Of a DNA stretch of 64,000 nucleotides, positions 53,760 through 63,457 are shown piece by piece. The notes under the pieces are model-generated. The model did not search any database. It worked only from the letters and a program-made list of their open reading frames with translations, and was not told the DNA's origin. Within the stretch, counting starts at the first letter, position 1; each line of letters begins with the position of its first letter. Both the position numbers and the translations under genes were made by a program. Source of the DNA: Cellulomonas fengjieae (lineage in GTDB: Bacteria; Actinomycetota; Actinomycetes; Actinomycetales; Cellulomonadaceae). The stretch is from NCBI RefSeq assembly GCF_018388465.1, contig NZ_CP074404.1, positions 1,116,001-1,180,000 on the forward strand, written 5' to 3'.

Positions 53760-54887
53760 ATGAGCAGTGCTCGCGTCCTCGTCATCGGTGCCGGTCCGGG
53801 CGGGCTCGCGGTCGCGGCCGCCCTCGGCCGCAGGGGCGTGCCTGACCTGGTGCTCGAACGGACGGACGACGTCGGCTCCTCGTGGCGCGGGCACTACGAC
53901 CGGCTGCACCTGCACACCACCCGGCGCGGGTCGAGCCTGCCCGGGATGCCGATCCCGCGGGCGTCCGGGCGCTGGGTCGCGCGCGCGGACGTCGTCGACT
54001 ACCTGGAGCGGTACACCGCGCACCACGGGATCGACGTGCGCACCGGGGTCGAGGTCACGCGCGTGGCGCGGGCCGGCCACGGCACCTGGGCGCTCGAGAC
54101 GGCGACCGGGGAGTCGTTCACGGGGCCGACGGTCGTGGTCGCCACGGGGTACAACCACACGCCCGTGCCGCCCGCCTGGCCCGGGGTCGAGACGTTCCGC
54201 GGTGAGCTGGTGCACGCGTCGACCTACCGGAACCCCGCCCCGTACCGCGGCAGGGACGTGCTCGTCGTGGGGGCCGGGAACACCGGGGCGGAGATCGCCG
54301 TCGACCTCACGGAGGGCGGAGCGGCGCGCGTCCGGCTGGCCATCCGCACGCCCCCGCACATCGTCCGGCGCTCGAACCTCGGCTGGCCCGCCCAGGGCAC
54401 CGGGATCCTGGTGCGGCACCTGCCGGTCCCGGTGGTGGACCGCATCGCGGCCGTGGTGGCCCGGGTCGAGGTGCCGGACCTCTCCGCCTACGGGCTTGCG
54501 CGGCCCACCACCGGGCTCTACTCGCGCGTCTTGGCGGGCTCGGTCCCGCTGCAGGACGTCGGGCTCCTCGCCGCCGTCCGGGCACGGCGGGTGGAGCCGG
54601 TCGCGGCCGTGGAATCGTTCGACGACGGCGCGGCGGTGCTGGCCGACGGCTCCCGACTGACCCCCGACGTGATCATCGCGGCCACCGGGTACCGCCGCGG
54701 GCTCGAGGCGCTGGTGGGGGACCTGGGCGTGCTCGACGACCGCGGACTCCCGCGCGTGCACGGCCCGCGCACGTCGCACGACGCCCCGGGGCTCTACTTC
54801 ACCGGCTACACCAACCCGATCAGCGGCATGTTCCGCGAGCTGCGGATCGACGCCGGGCGGATCGCGCGGGCGGTCGCTCGCCGCTGA
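53760..54887 (+). CDS. Flavin-containing monooxygenase-like NAD(P)/FAD oxidoreductase
   Basis: 375 residues. FAD motif VLVIGAGPGGLAVAAALGRR, then SSWRGHYDRLHLHTTRRGSS, VVVATGYNHTPVPP, the NADPH motif VLVVGAGNTGAEIAVDL and IIAATGYRRGL. The organisation (two GxGxxG motifs and the ATG motif) is that of flavin-containing or YUCCA-type monooxygenases, which oxygenate nitrogen, sulfur or indole-pyruvate-like substrates. The substrate is unknown. The gene is transcribed alone from a clear -35/-10 promoter. Confidence 0.87.
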   Translation: MSSARVLVIGAGPGGLAVAAALGRRGVPDLVLERTDDVGSSWRGHYDRLHLHTTRRGSSLPGMPIPRASGRWVARADVVDYLERYTAHHGIDVRTGVEVTRVARAGHGTWALETATGESFTGPTVVVATGYNHTPVPPAWPGVETFRGELVHASTYRNPAPYRGRDVLVVGAGNTGAEIAVDLTEGGAARVRLAIRTPPHIVRRSNLGWPAQGTGILVRHLPVPVVDRIAAVVARVEVPDLSAYGLARPTTGLYSRVLAGSVPLQDVGLLAAVRARRVEPVAAVESFDDGAAVLADGSRLTPDVIIAATGYRRGLEALVGDLGVLDDRGLPRVHGPRTSHDAPGLYFTGYTNPISGMFRELRIDAGRIARAVARR

Positions 54888-55001
54888 GCGTGGCGCCTCA
54901 CGGCACGACGGTGAACGTCAGGTGCGTCGCCTCGTCGGTCGCGACGACGTCCGTGCTCGGCGGCCCAATGACGGCGGTCGGCGTCCGACGTGCTGGGGCG
55001 T

Positions 55002-55397
55002 TCAGGCCTCGTCGGGGAAGAACCGCATCAGGTCGTAGTTGGCGACCAGGCGCGCGAAGCCCAGGGGAGTCTGACCCGACGCGTTCTGCGCCTCCTTGTC
55101 CGCACCCGCCTCGAGCAGCACCCGGACCACCTCGCCGTCGGAGTCCCGGACCTTGCCCAGCGCGACCAGGAGGGGGGTCGCACCGAACCTGTTGCGCGCC
55201 TCGAGGTCCGCGCCCGCCTGCAGCAGCAGGCGGGCGACGTCGGCGTGCAGGGACTGCGCGGCGAAGTGCAGGGGAGTGAACCCCGCCTGGTCGGCGAGGT
55301 CGGGGTCCTCTCCCTGCGCGAGCAGGCGCTCCACTGCGGCCGTGTCCCCGTCGAGCGCGGCGTAGTGCAGCTCCGATCGTCCCGCGCGGTCGGTCAC
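55002..55397 (-). CDS. Ankyrin-repeat protein, probable immunity protein of the Rhs toxin
   Basis: 131 residues, GTG 55397 with GAGGAG upstream. Three to four ankyrin repeats: SELHYAALDGDTAAVERLLA, FTPLHFAAQSLHADVARLLL, ATPLLVALGKVRDSD and QTPLGFARLVANYDLMRFF. No signal peptide, so it is cytosolic. It starts nine bases after the stop of the giant Rhs gene on the same strand, the classic place for the immunity gene of a polymorphic toxin, and ankyrin proteins are among the recognised immunity families. It would bind and block the GH-E nuclease. Immunity function is inferred from position. Confidence 0.82.
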   Translation of the reverse strand: MTDRAGRSELHYAALDGDTAAVERLLAQGEDPDLADQAGFTPLHFAAQSLHADVARLLLQAGADLEARNRFGATPLLVALGKVRDSDGEVVRVLLEAGADKEAQNASGQTPLGFARLVANYDLMRFFPDEA

Positions 55398-55406
55398 CGG
55401 GTCTCC

Positions 55407-58400
55407 TCAGGGCATCTCGTAGCGGTGCGACCAGTTGTTCTCCGGCCGCTCGATCTGGAACAGGTTGGGGTCGTTGACGTAGTCGTTGAGCTGGTCACGC
55501 GACCACCCCTGCTCGATGGACTTGTCGCGCACGCGCCACCACTCGTTGCCATAAGTGTGACCGAAGTGGAAGGGCCCCTCGATCGGCTGCTGGTCGTTCT
55601 CGTCGATCAGACGGCCCTTCCCGTCGCGCGGTGCCCGCTCCAGCACCTCGTCGCGCACCCACTGCCGGATGTACGGGCGCGACACCTGGGGCGCCGGACC
55701 CGTCTCGGGGTCGACGATGAACCGCCCGCGGTCGTCGATGGCGCGGCCGGACGCGTTGCGGCGGACGGTGCCGTCCTCGGCGCCGGTCTGCGGCGGCTGG
55801 CCCGCGGCGCCGGGCGCACCGGGCACGGAGGCCGTGGGGACGAAGGAGGTCGACAGGTCGACCGGCGTCGTCATGTCCGCAGCGGTGTCACCCGCGGCAG
55901 CACGGCACATGAGCAGGCTGACCTCGCACAGGCGTGCGGCGTCCACCGGCAGGACGCCCACCGGGTTGGCGATCTCCGGCCGCGTGGTCAGCGACTCCGA
56001 GTGGTCCGGCTCGTTCGCCCAGTTCGAGCTGGGCAGTGCCGCGAGGATGCCCTGGAGCGCGGCGTTCATCTCGGCGAGGGCGCGCACCATGTCGTCGATG
56101 GCCCGGCCGATCTGGCTGATGGCCTGGTTCATCTGGCTGAGGCCCTGGTTCGCCTGGCTGAGCCCGCTGTTCATCTGGCTCAGGCCCTGGTTCGCCTGGC
56201 TGAGCCCGCTGTTCATCTGGCTCAGGCCCTGGTTCGCCTGGGTGAGCCCGCTGTTCATCTGGCCGAGACCCTGGTTCATCTGGCCGAGACCCTGGTTCGC
56301 CTGGCCCAGACCCTGGTTGGCCCCCGCGATGCCCGTGTTCATCTGGCCGATGCCGGCGTTCATGTCCGTCAGCGCGGTGGTGGTCTGGGTCAGACCCTGC
56401 AGGGCGGGACCCATGTTGATCTCGGGAGCGAAGCTGCCCAGACCTGAGAAGTCGAACTCGGGGACCGACGGCGCGGTGAACCCGGGTGACCGTCCCGGGG
56501 ACGGTCCCTCCTGAGGGCTCCTGCCCGGTCCGGTCGCGGGTGTGACGGAAGGTGCCTGGGGTGCCGTGGTGGTCGGCGTCTCCTGGGAGTGCTGGTAGAT
56601 CGCCACCCCCGCGACGACGACCACGACGACGACCACCACGACCGCCACGACGACGGCGGCCGTGGTCACGGCGGCCGCGGCCGCGAGGACGGCGCTGGCC
56701 TGCGCGACGCCCTGCGAGATGGCGGCGACGGCCGCGAAGCCGGGGACGAACTGACCGGTCGGGTCGCTGTTGCCGACCGGGTTCCCGGCTGCGTAGGCGT
56801 ACCGGTTCGCCTGGTCGAGCGGCACCTGCGCGGCGTCCCGCGTGACGAACGACCCGGTCGTCGGGTCGTACCACCGGGACTGCATGTGCACGAGGCCCGA
56901 CTGCGCCGTCCACTGACCCTGGTAGCCCAGACCGCCCGCGGCACGCTCACCGGTGGGCAGCCCCCACGGGGTGTACCCGGTGGACTGGTTCAGCACGCCA
57001 CCGTCCCCGAGGGTCGCGACGACGTCACCGTGCCCGTTCTGGACGGTCGGGCGACCGTCCACGGCCAGCAGCGCGCCGCCGACCCGGCCGTAGCGGTGCT
57101 CGCCCGCCGTGGAGGGCTCCTTGGCGAGCCCGGCGTACTGGAACGCCTGCGTGCCCGCCGTGGCGATCCGACCGAGGGCGTCGTAGGAGTACTGCGTCGT
57201 GGCGTCCGACGTGAGCTGGCCGAACGCGTCGAACGTCGACCGGGTCGTCTCGCCCTCGGTGGTCACCGCGCTGCGCGTGCCGCGAGGACTCCACTCGAAG
57301 GTGGACGCACCGTCGGCTAGCAGCCGGTTGCGCTCGTCGTACGTGGACGTCACGCCGTCGCGGGCCACCACGTTGCCCGCGCGGTCCAGCGTCTGCGTGT
57401 GCTGGGTCCCGTCCGGGTCGACCCAGCCGGTCAGCTGGGAGGCGGCGTCGTAGGCGTACGTGGTCGTGCCGGCGTCCGCGGTCGTGGCCGGGCCCACCGT
57501 CTTCGTCGCGAGCCTGCCCGCGGCGTCGTAGGTGCCCGACCAGGCGTAGGTGGAGCCGACCGTGTCCGACGTGAGGCGGCCCGCCGCGTCGTAGGAGAAC
57601 GAGCGGGACGTGCCGTCGGCGTACGTCTCGCTGAGCGGCAGCCCGGCGGACGTGTACGCGTACGTGCGGCGCAGACCGTCGACCGTCGCGGAGCTGAGTC
57701 GCCCGGCGCGCGTCCAGGTCGCGGAGTACGCCCCCGACGCGTCGGCGCCCGCGACCGCGCGGCCGGCAGCGTCGTACGTGGTGGTGGTGTCTCCGGCCGG
57801 TCCGGAGGCGGCGATCAGCAGCCCACGTCCGTCGTACGTGAAGCGCTGGACGCCGTCCGGGTGCGAGGCCCCGGTGATCCGCCCCGACGCGTCGTACTCG
57901 TAGGTCCGCTCGGCGGGCTGCGCGCCGCCGCCGGAGCCGGCCTCGGTCAGCACACGGCCGTCGGCGTCGAACGTGCGCGTCGTCCGGACGCCGCCCGGCT
58001 CGACCGCGGTGACGGCGTTGCCCACGACGTCGAACGACGTCGTCCACGTGCGGCCGGCGAGCGCGGGGTGCGCAGCCGTCGGCGGCTCGACGACCGTCGT
58101 GGGCCGGCCGAGCGCGTCGCGGGTGATGTCGGTGGCGTGGCCCCGGGGGTCCACGATGCGCGTGAGGTCGCCGGCGGCGTCGTACGAGAGCGTCGTCGTC
58201 GCGCCGACCGCCGTGGCCTGGCTCCGCATCCGCCCGGCGGCGTCCCACGTCCACGCGCCACCGGTGCCGAGCGGCCCGCTCGCGGTGAGCTGGTTGCCCG
58301 CGGGGTCGTACGTCGCGGTCGTGGTCTCGATGACCGCGTCCCCCGCGCCGAGGCGCGTCTTCTTCACCGGGTTGCCGACGCCGTCGTACTCGACGACGGC

Positions 58401-61400
58401 CGTCTGCCCGCCGCTGGCGATGCGGGTCTGCCGGCCCAGGGCGTCGTAGCCCACGGTGACGGCGACCGAGTCGGCGTCCGTGGCGGAGGTCAGGTTGCCG
58501 AACGTGTCGTAGCCGAGCCGGGTGACGGCACCCAGGGGGTCGGTCACCGCGGTCGCGCGGCCGGCGTCGTCGTAGGCGAACGTCGTGGTGTAGGCGGTCG
58601 TGCCGTCCCAGCTCGTCGCCGAGGTCCGCAGGCCCCGCTTGTCGTAGGCCCACGTGGCCTTCCGGCCCGTGGGGTCGGTCATGGCGGTGACGTCACCCGC
58701 GTCCGACCACGTCCAGGTCGAGACGCGCGGCGTCCCGCCGGCCGTCGCGGGCGGCTCGGTCGTCGTCGCCGCGCGGCCCAGCACGTCGTACGTGTGGGAG
58801 GTGACGCGGCCCGCGGCGTCGGTCTCCGAGGTCAGGTCCCCGGCGGCGTCGTACGCGCGCGTCACCGTCGGCGTCGTGACCGAGCCGTCGGCGAGCGTCA
58901 CCCGGGGAGCGGTGACGGAAGCCACGCGACCCCCGGCGTCGTACGCGACGGTCGTCCTGGCGCCCGTCTGGTCCACCACCACGGACTGGCGTCCGAAGGC
59001 GTCGTACCCGAAGCGGGTGGTGGGCCGGGACGAGCGGGTGCCGGACGCGTCGGTGACCGCGGTCAGCGGCTCGGCCACCGAGGTGACCTGACCGGTCGCG
59101 TCGTAGGTGTACGTCGTGGACCACGCGGGGTCGCCCACCGCGGAGCCGCGCTGGTCCGTCGTCGCGGTCAGGCGTCCCGCCTCGTCGTACGCGTGACGGG
59201 TCACCCGCTCGTCGGCGGTGCGTCCGCTCGCGACCAGCACGGCGCGGCCGGCGGTGTCGTACTCGGTGCGCGTGTACGACAGCACGCCCGTCGCGTCACC
59301 CACGGACTGCCGGGTGACCCGTCCGGCGGCGTCACGCGTGTAGGTCGTCACCCGCGGCCCGGTGGACTCGCGGGAGAGCCGCCCGAGCGCGTCGTAGGTG
59401 TACGACGTCGTCGACAGGCCGTTGGCCGTGGACACCGAGGTCACGTTGCCCAGGGCGTCGTACGCGTAGGCCTGCTCGATGACGTCCCTGCCACCGCTGG
59501 CGCCGACCGCGGTGACGCTCGTGAGGCGGCCGTCCAGCCGGTAGGCGTACCGGCGCACCTGGCCGGCGGCGTCCGTCGCGGTCGCCAGCCTGCCGACCGC
59601 GTCGTAGGTCGCGGTCGCCAGGCGGACGTCCCGCGGTGCGGCGGCCTTGTCCAGCGGGTCGCGGTACCCCATGAGGGTCGAGGTCAGGGGTCGCCCGAGC
59701 GCGTCGAACGTCGAGGAGACGACCGCGCCGCGCGCGTCCGTCGACGAGGTCACGTTGCCCAGGGCGTCGTAGGTGTACGCGGCCTGACGCGAGCCGTCGG
59801 GTCCGACGACCTTGACCACCCGTCCGAGCGTGTCGTAGCTCGTCGCGACCGTGGAGACCGCACCGCTGCGCAGGTCGGACGTGCGCTGCTCGCTGGGACG
59901 TCCACCCGCGTCGAGCACCGTCTCGGTGCGGACCTGCCGGGTCACGCCGCTCACGGAGTCGGCGACCGCGGGGCCGGTCGTCGAGCGCACCACGCCGTCG
60001 TCGAACCAGCCGAAGGTGGACGTCGACGTCGTGCCGCCCGCGACGCTGGAGATCGTCGCGGTGCGGCCGAGCGTGTCGTAGGTGTAGCCCGTCGCCAGTC
60101 CGGCGGGGGTCGTGACCGTGCGGACCTGGCCGCTCGAGGCGTACGCGTACTGGACCGCGCCTCCACCCGGGGTGGTGACCTTGGCCAGCAGCCCGGCCGG
60201 TACGGTGCCACCCCCCACGGCGGTCTCGCTGCCGGTGGTGTAGGCGTACACCTGACGGGGCGCGGCCGGGGACGCGGTGAGCGAGCCCTGGACCTCCGCG
60301 GTCAGGCGCCCGGCGGCGTCGTACTCGTACGACGTCATGTCGGTGCCGGAGACGTACACGTTGTCCCCGCACCACCAGCCCCGCGGGTCCTGGACGCTCT
60401 TGAGCTTGCCGTAGGTGACGCCGGCGGCCTTGTAGTAGGTGAAGCACTGCGTCGTGTAGGTCGTCGGGGTCTGCCACACGCTGCGGGAGGCGATGAAGCC
60501 CTCCGGGGAGTAGGCGAGCGTGAGCCCACCGCCCGCGGCGTCCTGGTAGCGGGCCAGCCGGCCGGCGGAGTCGTACGTCCACGTCTGCGCGCCGCCGAGC
60601 GCGTCGACCTGCCTGGTGACGCGCGAGTCGGCGTCGATCGTGTACGTGGTGGCCACCGCGCCCGGCCCGGTCGAGGTCACCTTGGTGCCGCCCGTGACGG
60701 CAGAGCGGGCGAACGTCCACCTCGTGCCCGCGGCGTCCGCCACGCTCGCCGCGACGGCGCCCGAGCCGTACGTGACGGTGGCGCGCACGGCGCCGGAGGG
60801 GTCACCGACCGACGTGATGGCGTTGGGGTACGTGGCATTGGCGTACGCGTAGGTGGTGCACCGCACGACCGTGCCGAGCCCGGGGGCGCACGCCTTCGTC
60901 AGGCGGTCGCCCGAGTAGGTGTAGTTCCACTCGCTGACGACGCCGCTCGGTGCCGGGCCGGCGGCGATCTTCGTGATGTGCGCACCGCTCCACGTGACGG
61001 TGAGGGTGCGGCCGGACTTGGCGTCCTTGAGCTGGGTGGGCTTCTTGGTGGTCGCGTCACGCGTGACGTTGACGACGTTGCCCGACTGGTTCTTGACCGA
61101 GAGCAGGCCGAGGTTGTCGAGCGTGAAGGTCGAGCCCTGCCCGTCGGACACGGTGTACGCGGTGCAGGTCGAGCACTTGGTCAGGGTGGTCCCGAGGTTG
61201 CCCGGCGCGCCGGCGAAGCTGCCGTCGGGGTTGGCGGCGAACCCTTCGACGTGCCCGTCGGCGAACTGCACGACGGGGCCCGCCGCGCCCGACGGGGTCG
61301 AGACGGACATGTCGAACACCGACGTCCACCCCGCGCCCAGGGCCCGCACGGCCGTGTCGACGCTGCGATAGCTCCGGGAGATCGCCAGCGAGCCACCGGC

Positions 61401-62594
61401 GACCGCGACGGCCGCGTCGATCGACTCCGAGGTGAAGGCCCCGGAACCGACGCTGACCCCGTGGTCGTACGGTGCGCGGCGGTCGGCGACGACCTTGGCC
61501 TGCGCGGGCACCGGCACGATCGGGTAGAAGGTGCGCTCGGGGTTGAAGATCGTGCCCATGTACGGGTTGTCGCGGATGGCGACGGACCACGTGTAGCCGC
61601 GGTTCCAGTACAGGGTCGTTGTCGGGACGGTGATGGTGCGACTCGCCTGCCAGGACGAGTTCCACGTCATGGCGCCGTCGTAGGACGTGATCGTGAACTG
61701 GTACTGGTACGTCGCGCCGGGCACGGGCCGGCTGATCGAGGCGGTCAGCACCGGCGTGCGCGTGGTCAGGACGGCCGCGTCGGCAGGACTGACCAGCACC
61801 GGTGTGTCGCTGTCGGGCGCGGACAGCGTCGCGCCGGTCGCGAACACGCGCACGTCGTTGAACCAGGTGCCCCAGGCCGACGTGGCACCGGGCTGACCCT
61901 CGGAGACCTCCACCGACCACGAGTACGTGGAGTTCGCCTTCAGCTTCCCGGCGGGCACCGTCCACGAGCCCGTCGTCCACGCGGACTGCGCCGCGATGGG
62001 GGTGTCATTCGTGCAGGAGCTCGAGCCGGCCGATGTCGTGCCCGGGCAGACGGTGAACCGGAAGATGTACGACACGCCGCTGACCGGTTCCGCGACCTTC
62101 GCCTTCAGCGTCGGCGTCAGCCCGAGGTTCACCGCGTTGTCCGCGGGAGACGTCTGGCTCGACCGCAGCGGTGCGTCGTCCTGGGGTGCGGCGGCCAGGC
62201 CGTTCGCGCCCATGGCGACGGCGCCGGGCTTGCGCGCCGAGCGGACCGTGTCGCGGATCTCCGCGGGTGTCATGAGGTGCGGGTCGGCGGCGGTCCCGCC
62301 GTCGAGGTGCACGAGGCGCGGACCGCTCAGCGGCGCGAGCCGGGGGGGACCGGCCGGCGGCGCGGCGGGCTCGATCAGCGGCGGCAGGGCGACGGCGCTC
62401 ATCGAGCCCGTGCGGGTGCCGTCGGTGTCGGCGGGCGGGGTGGCCGCGTCCGCGGTGGCCGTGCGGTCGAGCGCCGCCTCGACGGTGGCCGCGCGGGGCG
62501 GCGCCTCCGCCACGTCGGTGGTCAGGGTGGCGACCAGCGCCACACCGGTGACCGCGGCAACCCACGACGCACGTCCTGCCGACCGCCGGCGCAT
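55407..62594 (-). CDS. Rhs/YD-repeat polymorphic toxin with GH-E-type HNH nuclease tip
   Basis: 2395 residues, ATG 62594 with GGAGG seven bases upstream. Order: signal peptide (1-31), low-complexity Pro/Ala region, two fibronectin-like domains (about 115-330), a long run of YD repeats (about 340-1900) and the Rhs core end (SRWYDPTTGSFVTRDA, AYAAGNPVGNSDPTGQ at about 1938-1948). After the core come a hydrophobic segment rich in valine (about 1975-1999), a Pro/Thr linker, 15 heptads (2078-2182), a variable linker and the C-terminal toxin. The last 54 residues (GH at 2345-2346, then NNWSHRYE with the terminal Glu2393) fit the GH-E family of HNH/EndoVII nucleases, though I could not check this by search. 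It should be exported, cell-wall-associated like WapA, and deliver a DNase or RNase into neighbours. Confidence 0.88.
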   Translation of the reverse strand: MRRRSAGRASWVAAVTGVALVATLTTDVAEAPPRAATVEAALDRTATADAATPPADTDGTRTGSMSAVALPPLIEPAAPPAGPPRLAPLSGPRLVHLDGGTAADPHLMTPAEIRDTVRSARKPGAVAMGANGLAAAPQDDAPLRSSQTSPADNAVNLGLTPTLKAKVAEPVSGVSYIFRFTVCPGTTSAGSSSCTNDTPIAAQSAWTTGSWTVPAGKLKANSTYSWSVEVSEGQPGATSAWGTWFNDVRVFATGATLSAPDSDTPVLVSPADAAVLTTRTPVLTASISRPVPGATYQYQFTITSYDGAMTWNSSWQASRTITVPTTTLYWNRGYTWSVAIRDNPYMGTIFNPERTFYPIVPVPAQAKVVADRRAPYDHGVSVGSGAFTSESIDAAVAVAGGSLAISRSYRSVDTAVRALGAGWTSVFDMSVSTPSGAAGPVVQFADGHVEGFAANPDGSFAGAPGNLGTTLTKCSTCTAYTVSDGQGSTFTLDNLGLLSVKNQSGNVVNVTRDATTKKPTQLKDAKSGRTLTVTWSGAHITKIAAGPAPSGVVSEWNYTYSGDRLTKACAPGLGTVVRCTTYAYANATYPNAITSVGDPSGAVRATVTYGSGAVAASVADAAGTRWTFARSAVTGGTKVTSTGPGAVATTYTIDADSRVTRQVDALGGAQTWTYDSAGRLARYQDAAGGGLTLAYSPEGFIASRSVWQTPTTYTTQCFTYYKAAGVTYGKLKSVQDPRGWWCGDNVYVSGTDMTSYEYDAAGRLTAEVQGSLTASPAAPRQVYAYTTGSETAVGGGTVPAGLLAKVTTPGGGAVQYAYASSGQVRTVTTPAGLATGYTYDTLGRTATISSVAGGTTSTSTFGWFDDGVVRSTTGPAVADSVSGVTRQVRTETVLDAGGRPSEQRTSDLRSGAVSTVATSYDTLGRVVKVVGPDGSRQAAYTYDALGNVTSSTDARGAVVSSTFDALGRPLTSTLMGYRDPLDKAAAPRDVRLATATYDAVGRLATATDAAGQVRRYAYRLDGRLTSVTAVGASGGRDVIEQAYAYDALGNVTSVSTANGLSTTSYTYDALGRLSRESTGPRVTTYTRDAAGRVTRQSVGDATGVLSYTRTEYDTAGRAVLVASGRTADERVTRHAYDEAGRLTATTDQRGSAVGDPAWSTTYTYDATGQVTSVAEPLTAVTDASGTRSSRPTTRFGYDAFGRQSVVVDQTGARTTVAYDAGGRVASVTAPRVTLADGSVTTPTVTRAYDAAGDLTSETDAAGRVTSHTYDVLGRAATTTEPPATAGGTPRVSTWTWSDAGDVTAMTDPTGRKATWAYDKRGLRTSATSWDGTTAYTTTFAYDDAGRATAVTDPLGAVTRLGYDTFGNLTSATDADSVAVTVGYDALGRQTRIASGGQTAVVEYDGVGNPVKKTRLGAGDAVIETTTATYDPAGNQLTASGPLGTGGAWTWDAAGRMRSQATAVGATTTLSYDAAGDLTRIVDPRGHATDITRDALGRPTTVVEPPTAAHPALAGRTWTTSFDVVGNAVTAVEPGGVRTTRTFDADGRVLTEAGSGGGAQPAERTYEYDASGRITGASHPDGVQRFTYDGRGLLIAASGPAGDTTTTYDAAGRAVAGADASGAYSATWTRAGRLSSATVDGLRRTYAYTSAGLPLSETYADGTSRSFSYDAAGRLTSDTVGSTYAWSGTYDAAGRLATKTVGPATTADAGTTTYAYDAASQLTGWVDPDGTQHTQTLDRAGNVVARDGVTSTYDERNRLLADGASTFEWSPRGTRSAVTTEGETTRSTFDAFGQLTSDATTQYSYDALGRIATAGTQAFQYAGLAKEPSTAGEHRYGRVGGALLAVDGRPTVQNGHGDVVATLGDGGVLNQSTGYTPWGLPTGERAAGGLGYQGQWTAQSGLVHMQSRWYDPTTGSFVTRDAAQVPLDQANRYAYAAGNPVGNSDPTGQFVPGFAAVAAISQGVAQASAVLAAAAAVTTAAVVVAVVVVVVVVVVAGVAIYQHSQETPTTTAPQAPSVTPATGPGRSPQEGPSPGRSPGFTAPSVPEFDFSGLGSFAPEINMGPALQGLTQTTTALTDMNAGIGQMNTGIAGANQGLGQANQGLGQMNQGLGQMNSGLTQANQGLSQMNSGLSQANQGLSQMNSGLSQANQGLSQMNQAISQIGRAIDDMVRALAEMNAALQGILAALPSSNWANEPDHSESLTTRPEIANPVGVLPVDAARLCEVSLLMCRAAAGDTAADMTTPVDLSTSFVPTASVPGAPGAAGQPPQTGAEDGTVRRNASGRAIDDRGRFIVDPETGPAPQVSRPYIRQWVRDEVLERAPRDGKGRLIDENDQQPIEGPFHFGHTYGNEWWRVRDKSIEQGWSRDQLNDYVNDPNLFQIERPENNWSHRYEMP
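56049..56363 (-). repeat. 15 tandem 21-bp (7-residue) repeats within the Rhs gene
   Basis: Fifteen consecutive heptads (residues 2078-2182), the first twelve nearly uniform: (M/A)-N-(Q/S/T)-G-(L/I)-x-(Q/G). In the DNA, 21-bp units alternate in 42-bp pairs (MNSGLSQ ANQGLSQ). Leu/Ile and Met/Ala are spaced 3 and 4 apart, the a/d pattern of a coiled coil. It lies between the membrane segment and the toxin. Confidence 0.9.
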
Positions 62595-62944
62595 AGCCGT
62601 ACCTCCACCCGATGGGAACACATGACCTGGCGGTCGCGCTCAACCATCGGCGGCGACGGAGGGGAGCATAGGGCACGTCAGAGCTGTTGTGTACCGCCCA
62701 TACGAGTCGCGGACGGCGCCCTGACCTGGGCCGACGTCGGCAAGGCCCGGCGCCGGGCGGCGACCGCGAGAGCGGGGAGCCCGTCGGCGATGCGCCGGCT
62801 GACGCCCGGGCGGTCCGGTGCTTGCGCCGTTCGGCTGGTTCGTCCGACCGAAGGGGGCGCCAGAGCGCAAAACGCCCACGCGGGCGCCCCTGAACGCGGT
62901 ATAACCGACGCGCCCACACCCGCGCGGATCGAGGACGCCGACAC
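62595..62944. other. 350-base intergenic region between the Rhs and NfeD genes
   Basis: Divergent promoters are expected here. For the NfeD/flotillin operon, TATAAC (62900-62905) is a possible -10 box with no clear -35. GGGGCGCC (about 62856-62863) and GGCGCCCC (about 62883-62890) could form an 8-bp hairpin just upstream. The rest shows no ORF with a ribosome site, no tRNA and no repeat that I can support. Confidence 0.4.
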
Positions 62945-63457
62945 ATGCTCTTCTTCTGGGTCATCGCCGGCGTCGCGCTGCTGCTCCTGGTCCTGGTGGT
63001 GACCGTCGGCGATCTCTTCGACGGCGTGCTCGACGCCCTGGACTTCACGGGCGGCTACCTGTCGTCCACGGCCGTCCTGTCGTTCCTGGCCACCTTCGGC
63101 ATCGTCGGCGGTCTCCTGCTGGGCACGACGGACGTGAGCCTGCTGGTCGCGTCGCTCGGTGGGGTCGTGGCGGGCGCGGTGGTCGGCGCAGGCGCGGCCG
63201 TCGCCACCCGCTCGCTGACCGACGGACCCACGGCACACCAGATCACCAGCAGCGACTACGTCGGTCAGGCCGCTACCGTGACCACCTCGATCCCGGCCGT
63301 CGGGCTCGGGCAGGTCTCGCTCGTCGTGGCCGGGCAGAGCACCGCGCTCGCGGCCCGCGCGGACGGCCCCGTGCCCCTCGGCGCAGGTGTCACCGTCGTG
63401 GCCAACCTCGGTCCGGGTGTCGTCCAGGTCGCCACCACGTCGTCCCTCTCGCTCTAG
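62945..63457 (+). CDS. NfeD-like membrane protein
   Basis: 170 residues. Three to four hydrophobic segments (LFFWVIAGVALLLLVLVVTV, STAVLSFLATFGIVGGLLLG, LLVASLGGVVAGAVVGAGAA) are followed by a C-terminal OB-fold domain (about 100-165: YVGQAATVTTSIPAVG, GQVSLVVAGQSTALAARA, GAGVTVVANLG). This is the layout of NfeD short forms (NfeD1b/YuaF type), which partner flotillin in membrane microdomains; flotillin follows 9 bases downstream. The operon is divergent from the Rhs gene. Confidence 0.87.
   Translation: MLFFWVIAGVALLLLVLVVTVGDLFDGVLDALDFTGGYLSSTAVLSFLATFGIVGGLLLGTTDVSLLVASLGGVVAGAVVGAGAAVATRSLTDGPTAHQITSSDYVGQAATVTTSIPAVGLGQVSLVVAGQSTALAARADGPVPLGAGVTVVANLGPGVVQVATTSSLSL

What the first reader, a model, noticed from the sequence alone, without database searches (positions are those of the whole stretch)
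55002..62594. Rhs polymorphic toxin with a membrane segment and a heptad stalk between Rhs core and nuclease tip, plus ankyrin immunity protein
The order is signal peptide, Fn-like domains, YD repeats, Rhs core, poly-valine hydrophobic stretch, coiled-coil-like heptads, variable linker and a C-terminal domain with the G-H ... N-x-S-H-x-Y-E pattern of GH-E nucleases. A valine-rich membrane helix and a long stalk after the Rhs core are not part of the textbook Rhs/WapA layout and might serve in membrane penetration or display of the toxin. The ankyrin gene nine bases downstream fits an immunity role.
Basis: partly seen in the sequence, partly recalled or inferred. Interest (0 to 1): 0.7.

Follow-up and report, generated by a model that had tools for sequence, protein, structure and literature searches.

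The report
Rhs nuclease toxin with ankyrin immunity
This looks like a large bacterial weapon protein that carries a nuclease tip, next to the gene for its antidote; the pairing is already known as a kind, and the only unusual part is a long, very regular helical stalk between shell and tip.

Summary
Window 62594-55407 (-) encodes a 2395-aa Rhs protein: signal peptide, weak Ig-like domains, 28 Rhs-repeat matches, Rhs core ending PxxxxDPxG, a very hydrophobic segment, a Pro/Ser/Thr/Gly-rich spacer, 17 uninterrupted heptads and a GH-E nuclease tip. A 131-aa ankyrin protein follows after 9 bases. The nuclease call is firm by sequence (PF14410, 64.6 bits, cut-off 25). The ankyrin pairing is well supported: the 5 GH-E relatives that I examined (of 29 records found), from two phyla and two other delivery types, each have an ankyrin gene directly downstream, and this is the only Ank_2 match in its genome. 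The pairing was listed in print in 2012 (Tox-GH-E with Imm-ank and RHS). The heptad stalk is the real oddity: 18 in-phase positions against at most 5 elsewhere in the sample. Its function is unknown; I infer a coiled-coil spacer. Eight relatives with the same flanks lack the locus. Verdict: a GH-E/ankyrin Rhs toxin with an unusual linker; modest interest.

The parts
55407..62594 (-). Rhs polymorphic toxin gene, 2395 aa plus stop; other in-frame starts are GTG 62621 (9 codons upstream) and the start of a database copy at residue 18
62502..62594 (-). Sec-type signal peptide, about residues 1-31 (basic start, hydrophobic core, AEA)
   Evidence: read from the translation; no predictor was run
61911..62180 (-). 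Ig-like domain, residues 139-228 (best stretch; a second stretch was counted, its place not shown)
   Evidence: Big_5 PF13205 22.5 bits, below its cut-off 23.6; no solved relative by sequence of residues 40-375
61248..61463 (-). DUF6531, residues 378-449
   Evidence: 35 bits, cut-off 24.1
56976..61247 (-). RHS/YD repeats, about residues 450-1873
   Evidence: RHS_repeat 365.1 bits, 28 stretches; outer limits are mine
56751..56975 (-). Rhs core, residues 1874-1948, ending in PxxxxDPxG plus Gln, with an earlier Asp (autoprotease dyad positions)
   Evidence: TIGR03696 61.3 bits, cut-off 32.5; motif
56592..56744 (-). hydrophobic segment, about residues 1951-2001 (Ala-rich then poly-Val)
   Evidence: KD mean 3.59; DNA repeat 56612-56655; one helix in the model, pLDDT about 45-64
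56427..56579 (-). Pro/Ser/Thr/Gly-rich spacer, residues 2006-2056
   Evidence: 32 of 51 residues are P, S, T or G
56034..56390 (-). heptad stalk, 17 consecutive heptads, residues 2069-2187
   Evidence: DNA repeats of 21 and 42 bases; one helix 2062-2186 in the model, block pLDDT up to 93
55773..56033 (-). linker, about residues 2188-2274
   Evidence: no family over its cut-off there; low pLDDT
55410..55772 (-). toxin cassette, about residues 2275-2395; upstream boundary from a 62% identical metagenome relative
55416..55616 (-). GH-E nuclease domain, residues 2327-2393
   Evidence: PF14410 64.6 bits, cut-off 25
55403..55408 (-). GAGGAG ribosome-binding-like site of the ankyrin gene, overlapping the toxin stop codon
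   Evidence: read
55002..55397 (-). ankyrin-repeat immunity protein, 131 aa, GTG start
   Evidence: Ank_2 77.2 bits, cut-off 27.3; only Ank_2 match in the genome

Best explanation
A Sec-exported Rhs/WapA-type antibacterial toxin with its immunity gene. Shown by sequence: GH-E nuclease tip, Rhs core with both autoprotease aspartate positions, ankyrin partner; signal peptide by eye. Inferred: the shell folds outside the cell and cuts itself next to DPTG-Q, freeing a C-terminal piece of about 447 residues made of hydrophobic segment, spacer, stalk and nuclease. The hydrophobic segment then helps the piece enter or cross the membrane of a neighbouring cell. The stalk acts as a coiled-coil spacer, perhaps an oligomerising one. 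The nuclease cuts nucleic acid in the target's cytoplasm, and the ankyrin protein binds and blocks it in the producer and its kin. Rough odds: toxin/immunity pair 0.93; autocleavage 0.7; membrane step 0.5; stalk as spacer 0.4.
For: GH-E 64.6 bits and Ank_2 77.2 bits. Residues G2345, H2346, E2351, N2374, N2387, H2390, E2393 are invariant in 6 tips. Single Ank_2 match in 3.99 Mb. PMC3482391 Table 2 lists Tox-GH-E with Imm-SuFu and Imm-ank and RHS repeats (passages). The core keeps PxxxxDPxG and an earlier Asp; the matching two Asp of RhsA are needed for cleavage and killing (PMC8765631 passages). Three WXG GH-E toxins also have a hydrophobic stretch ahead of the tip, KD 2.04 to 2.51.
Against: No activity, secretion or binding was tested. 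The residue after DPxG is Gln, where the published consensus is Trp/Leu/Phe; Gln stands after the core model in 10 of 182 cores that fit my pattern and Leu in 97. The first Asp is in DAAQ, not DPxG. A segment this hydrophobic might stop Sec export and leave the tip inside the producer. The model of the tip is poor (mean pLDDT 55.1, pTM 0.31), so the fold was not checked by structure. The C-terminal piece is large for the published cavity of Rhs1, about 28,000 cubic angstrom (PMC8636562 passages). GH-E toxins are not tied to ankyrin alone: Table 2 also gives Imm-SuFu.
Confidence: 0.75

Rival explanations
1. The poly-valine tract and the heptads are neutral expansions of short DNA repeats in a tolerant linker, with no special function; the toxin works like any Rhs toxin.
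For: Both tracts are tandem repeats in the DNA: 12- and 15-base units within 56612-56655, 21- and 42-base units over 56097-56347. No other protein with the stalk was found. pN/pS between 9 heptad units is 0.58, weak evidence of constraint.
Against: 17 of 17 heptads keep L/I in phase, including 8 outside the nine units used for the codon count that have diverged in sequence; plain slippage would not keep that phase. The model is one continuous helix. In a second copy of the protein with 10 substitutions in 2377 shared residues, none falls in the hydrophobic segment, stalk or tip, and no length differs there; two close copies say little, though.
Confidence: 0.3
2. The hydrophobic segment is a stop-transfer anchor in the producer: export stalls with the shell outside and the stalk and nuclease inside, guarded by the ankyrin protein, and export resumes on contact.
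For: Mean hydropathy 3.59 over 19 residues, highest of 205; the immunity protein shows no signal peptide by eye.
Against: No assay; no charge bias that fixes the orientation is visible in the flanks (sequence printed). Autocleavage outside would strand the tip. CDI-type export arrest is recalled, not looked up.
Confidence: 0.1
3. The ankyrin protein is an unrelated neighbour.
For: Ankyrin repeats are general binding modules; binding not tested.
Against: and PMC3482391 Table 2 (its Table 3 row for Imm-ank names only Tox-AHH).
Confidence: 0.04

Closest known systems
Tox-GH-E / Imm-ank polymorphic toxin systems (PMC3482391, Tables 2 and 3; passages read)
   Same: GH, E, N, E motif, RHS repeats, ankyrin immunity partner, occurrence in Actinobacteria
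   Different: The paper uses 'stalk' for the repeat region of long toxins; 'coiled' and 'heptad' do not occur in the part of the text that is held (300,000 of 357,715 characters)
Teneurin-like protein of Bacillus inaquosorum (PMC13018210; section 8 and passages read)
   Same: YD shell, PxxxxDPxG cleavage site, predicted transmembrane region about 20 residues after it
   Different: Its C-terminal domain acts on membranes; no nuclease tip and no heptad stalk in what I read
WXG GH-E toxins of Mycobacterium prophages (MW584170, MW584194)
   Same: GH-E tip and ankyrin gene directly downstream; a milder hydrophobic stretch ahead of the tip
   Different: WXG100-type N-terminus, no RHS match
WapA of Streptococcus suis (PMC12704120; passages read)
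   Same: Sec-exported Gram-positive Rhs toxin with cleaved C-terminal toxin
   Different: Two Rhs domains, SrtB and SecF-like partners
X-X-X-Leu-X-X-Gly heptad repeats (TIGR03057) in actinobacterial proteins
   Same: Heptad repeats; TIGR03057 17.3 bits here, below its cut-off 18.6
   Different: Of 8 scanned among 29 such loci, 3 are ABC2-membrane-type proteins and none has an RHS match at E 1e-5

Membership tests
GH-E nuclease (PF14410) | Profile match above the curated cut-off | tested here: met
   64.6 bits in the full protein, 70.3 in the tip alone; cut-off 25
GH-E nuclease (PF14410) | Conserved GH, E, N, E residues | tested here: met
   Invariant in 6 tips; in a second set of 9, some of them fragments, G87, H88, E93, N129, H132, E135 are invariant and N116 is not
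GH-E nuclease (PF14410) | HNH/EndoVII fold | tested here: inconclusive
   Model mean pLDDT 55.1, pTM 0.31; no convincing solved relative by sequence, best E 0.016 to a ribosomal protein
GH-E nuclease (PF14410) | Nuclease activity | not testable with these tools
   needs an assay
Rhs/WapA polymorphic toxin | RHS repeats and Rhs-associated core | tested here: met
   365.1 bits, 28 stretches; TIGR03696 61.3 bits, cut-off 32.5
Rhs/WapA polymorphic toxin | DPxG-x18-DPxG autoprotease motif | tested here: inconclusive
   Second half PxxxxDPxG met; first half reads DAAQ with Asp kept; Asp spacing 24 instead of 22 (my count); Gln after DPxG
Rhs/WapA polymorphic toxin | Sec signal peptide in Gram-positive members | tested here: inconclusive
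   Clear by eye; no predictor available; a database copy is given a start at residue 18
Rhs/WapA polymorphic toxin | Same shell with exchanged C-termini in related strains | tested here: inconclusive
   Nothing to compare: no relative of residues 40-375 in 80 other genus genomes at E 1e-15 or 375 other genomes of the order sample at E 1e-5, where only 5 candidates a genome were scored; closest shells seen about 33% identical; the one near-identical copy has the same C-terminus but for one residue
Imm-ank immunity protein | Ankyrin repeats, directly downstream of the toxin | tested here: met
   Ank_2 77.2 bits, 9 bases
Imm-ank immunity protein | Neutralises the toxin | not testable with these tools
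   needs a rescue or binding assay

The most novel reading that the evidence does not exclude
The C-terminal piece is a membrane-tethered, stalked nuclease: hydrophobic anchor, flexible spacer and an 18-nm coiled coil carry the tip across the thick actinobacterial wall, possibly as an oligomer, instead of holding the toxin unfolded inside the Rhs shell.
Probability: 0.12. Interest if true: 0.6.

Novelty: new variant of a known kind. Interest (0 to 1): 0.33.

Why it matters
How Sec-exported Rhs toxins of Gram-positive bacteria get their toxin into a target is open; PMC12704120 calls the translocation into recipient cells enigmatic (passage). A natural variant with an extreme hydrophobic segment and a separable, regular stalk would let one ask which linker part matters. 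The GH-E/ankyrin pairing in CDI, WXG and Rhs proteins also gives a family in which the toxin/immunity interface could be compared.

Tried and rejected
Relatives of the C-terminal region: protein searches with residues 1945-2215 and 2220-2395 returned one cluster. I first took it for the window's own protein; on checking, its representative P0003 is a second, near-identical copy (10 substitutions in 2377 shared residues, start given at residue 18). No other relative came back. One search scored only the 7991 candidates that share most words. A genome-contig scan with the tip found none, nor one with residues 40-375. Of 148 genomes searched with residues 1932-2395, 37 had a match at E 0.001, own included. 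The listed matches in other genomes overlap the stalk except two, G080 (query 1-113, at an Rhs core) and G061 (query 37-111); all lie in shorter frames.

Structure of the tip: too poor to search folds with, so no fold search was run. The single-sequence model of 1932-2395 is good only for the stalk helix.

Stalk ancestry: heptad hits in other actinobacteria look like independent low-complexity resemblance (8 of 29 loci scanned); rejected as homology.

Self-corrections: one search read only one strand and missed about half of the cores; one search used too strict a pattern and failed; replaced. One search took a wrong record for the window, so its empty result was void; repeated with the right one and with flank controls. 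One search failed for the same reason. Draft statements that I mended: that P0003 is the window's own protein; that the pairing spans three phylum-level groups (it is two); that the shell-exchange test was 'not met' (it is inconclusive).

Limits of the survey: 220 Rhs loci from the window's own phylum, taken from the strongest matches and mostly from frames of 1000 aa or more, so not a random sample; 3 had no core by my model (L147, L158, L159), 4 were open at the end and 8 were shorter than 60 aa, leaving 205. One kept row (L064) looks frame-shifted.
Full report
What is there. Both neighbouring genes are on the other strand: an FAD-type oxidoreductase ORF at 53760-54887 and an NfeD-like ORF at 62945-63457 followed by a flotillin-like ORF (names read from the translations, no family scan run). 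So the pair stands as its own two-gene unit.

Toxin anatomy. Pfam finds 28 RHS-repeat stretches, DUF6531 and, at 2327-2393, GH-E (PF14410) with 64.6 bits against a cut-off of 25. NCBIfam finds the Rhs-associated core at 1874-1948, 61.3 bits against 32.5. The N-terminal domains are Ig-like, just under the cut-off (Big_5 22.5 bits, cut-off 23.6), not clearly Fn. After the core come a hydrophobic segment, a spacer with 32 of 51 residues P, S, T or G, 17 heptads and a linker.

The tip and its partner. tblastn finds tip relatives in 22 plasmid records (20 Moraxella, 1 Conchiformibius, 1 Photobacterium) and in 6 Mycobacterium phage records; the PF14410 profile finds 2 of 396 genomes of the phylum, the window's own and G464. 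I examined 5 of these 29 other records: one Conchiformibius, one Moraxella, two Mycobacterium prophages and G464. In 5 of 5 the next gene downstream is an ankyrin protein. The 24 others were not examined; many of the Moraxella records look alike. The toxins are a CDI-type hemagglutinin, a stand-alone ORF beside CDI-type genes, and three WXG proteins, so the pair travels as a cassette between delivery types and between Pseudomonadota and Actinomycetota. Twelve columns, with G-H, E, N, N, H and E among them, are invariant in six tips. In the whole own genome there is one Ank_2 match, this gene. The 2012 survey of polymorphic toxins lists this pairing, with Imm-SuFu as another partner (PMC3482391, Table 2 passage), so this is confirmation and not discovery. 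Its Table 3 row for Imm-ank names Tox-AHH only.

The hydrophobic segment. In 205 C-termini of actinobacterial Rhs proteins (220 loci; 3 without core, 4 open, 8 short were left out), 77 including this one have a 19-residue stretch of mean hydropathy 1.6 or more within 120 residues after the core, 34 reach 2.0 and 5 reach 2.5. By sample: 55 of 128 in genus and order, 22 of 77 in the wider phylum. This protein is the most hydrophobic of all, 3.59; the next is 2.93. Part of the excess lies in a DNA repeat. A predicted transmembrane region at the same place is published for a Bacillus teneurin-like protein, whose exported C-terminal domain made E. coli permeable to a dye (PMC13018210 section 8). 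Three WXG toxins with GH-E tips also have a milder hydrophobic stretch ahead of the tip, 2.04 to 2.51. So the presence of the segment is ordinary; its strength is extreme.

The stalk. All 17 heptads from 2069 to 2187 end in Leu or Ile with Thr, Met, Ala or Ile at the third place. The longest in-phase L/I run in the C-terminal region is 18, against at most 6 in 2000 shuffles and at most 5 in the other 204 C-termini; if Val and Met are also allowed it is 19 against 8. The model gives one helix of 125 residues (2062-2186), with block pLDDT of 72 or more over 2062-2171; at 0.15 nm per residue that is about 18-19 nm (my arithmetic). Against function: the repeats are also DNA repeats of 21 and 42 bases, and pN/pS of 0.58 between nine units is weak support for constraint. 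A second copy of the protein, on another contig, has 10 substitutions in 2377 shared residues, nine before the C-terminal region and one in the linker (2229), none in hydrophobic segment, stalk or tip. No Rhs paper with a heptad stalk turned up in the listings of three searches (3, 0 and 5 papers); the library is open-access only.

Cleavage. The core reads ...RDAAQVPLDQANRYAYAAGNPVGNSDPTG-QF. Both aspartate positions of the published RhsA dyad are present, and mutation of either stops cleavage and killing there (PMC8765631 passages). Departures: DAAQ in place of the first DPxG, spacing 24 in place of 22 (my count), and Gln after DPxG; Gln stands there in 10 of the 182 cores that fit my pattern (of 217). 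Cleavage is likely but not shown. The piece set free would be about 447 aa, about sixth longest of 205 (median 246 in the genus/order part), and large for the 28,000 cubic angstrom cavity of Rhs1 (PMC8636562 passages), though this shell is longer too.

Origin. NfeD-like and oxidoreductase flanks occur together on one contig in eight other genomes of the genus. In all eight I searched the stretch between them: the end of the oxidoreductase matches in 8 of 8 and the start of the NfeD-like gene in 2 of 8 (only about 100 bases or less of each flank were held), and no part of the Rhs or ankyrin protein matches. The N-terminal domain has no relative in 80 other genus genomes (E 1e-15) or in the 375 other genomes of the order sample (E 1e-5, 5 candidates a genome scored). 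The best shells among plasmid-collection records, about 33% identical, are in Nonomuraea and Streptomyces; the three I read have no heptad stalk (longest run 2) and lower hydropathy (1.06 to 1.67). So the unit may have been acquired from a distant source; the donor is unknown.

Module boundary. The closest tip besides the second copy, 62% identical over 91% of the query, is a 139-aa metagenome protein (P0007). It matches from TVRRN on and differs upstream, so the cassette begins near residue 2275 and the stalk is not part of it.

Verdict.

Noticed in passing
G000:C1, L009 8876-2664 (-): A second Rhs protein in the same genome (2070 aa, 25 RHS-repeat stretches, PT-HINT 58 bits) with a weak EndoU-like tip (13.7 bits, cut-off 25.3) and a 159-aa downstream ORF without a family, perhaps its immunity gene.
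   Followed up: partly
window 54888-62944 and L269-L276: The stretch between the oxidoreductase and NfeD-like genes varies between species (about 2.7 to 7.3 kb in eight relatives, no Rhs or ankyrin match), as if it were a site of exchange.
   Followed up: partly
P0003 against window 55407-62594: A near-identical copy of the toxin exists on a 515-kb contig: 10 substitutions, 9 of them in the N-terminal part and shell, 1 in the linker; poly-valine tract and heptads unchanged. Its strain is not named.
   Followed up: partly
window 56612-56655: The poly-valine tract lies in a short DNA repeat that could change length by slippage; the one other copy seen has the same length.
   Followed up: partly
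L184: The Moraxella bovis plasmid carries a row of small nuclease and partner ORFs near an FhaC-type gene: a GH-E/ankyrin pair followed by an HNH/EndoVII nuclease.
   Followed up: no
L042 994-1050, L185 2036-2092, L186 2024-2080: Three WXG-type GH-E toxins have a hydrophobic stretch between their helical domain and the tip (KD 2.51, 2.04, 2.12).
   Followed up: partly
G072:C1, G065:C110, G161:C11, G275:C1, G375:C1: Rows of several Rhs-core matches in short frames lie within a few kb of each other, as expected of orphan toxin modules.
   Followed up: no
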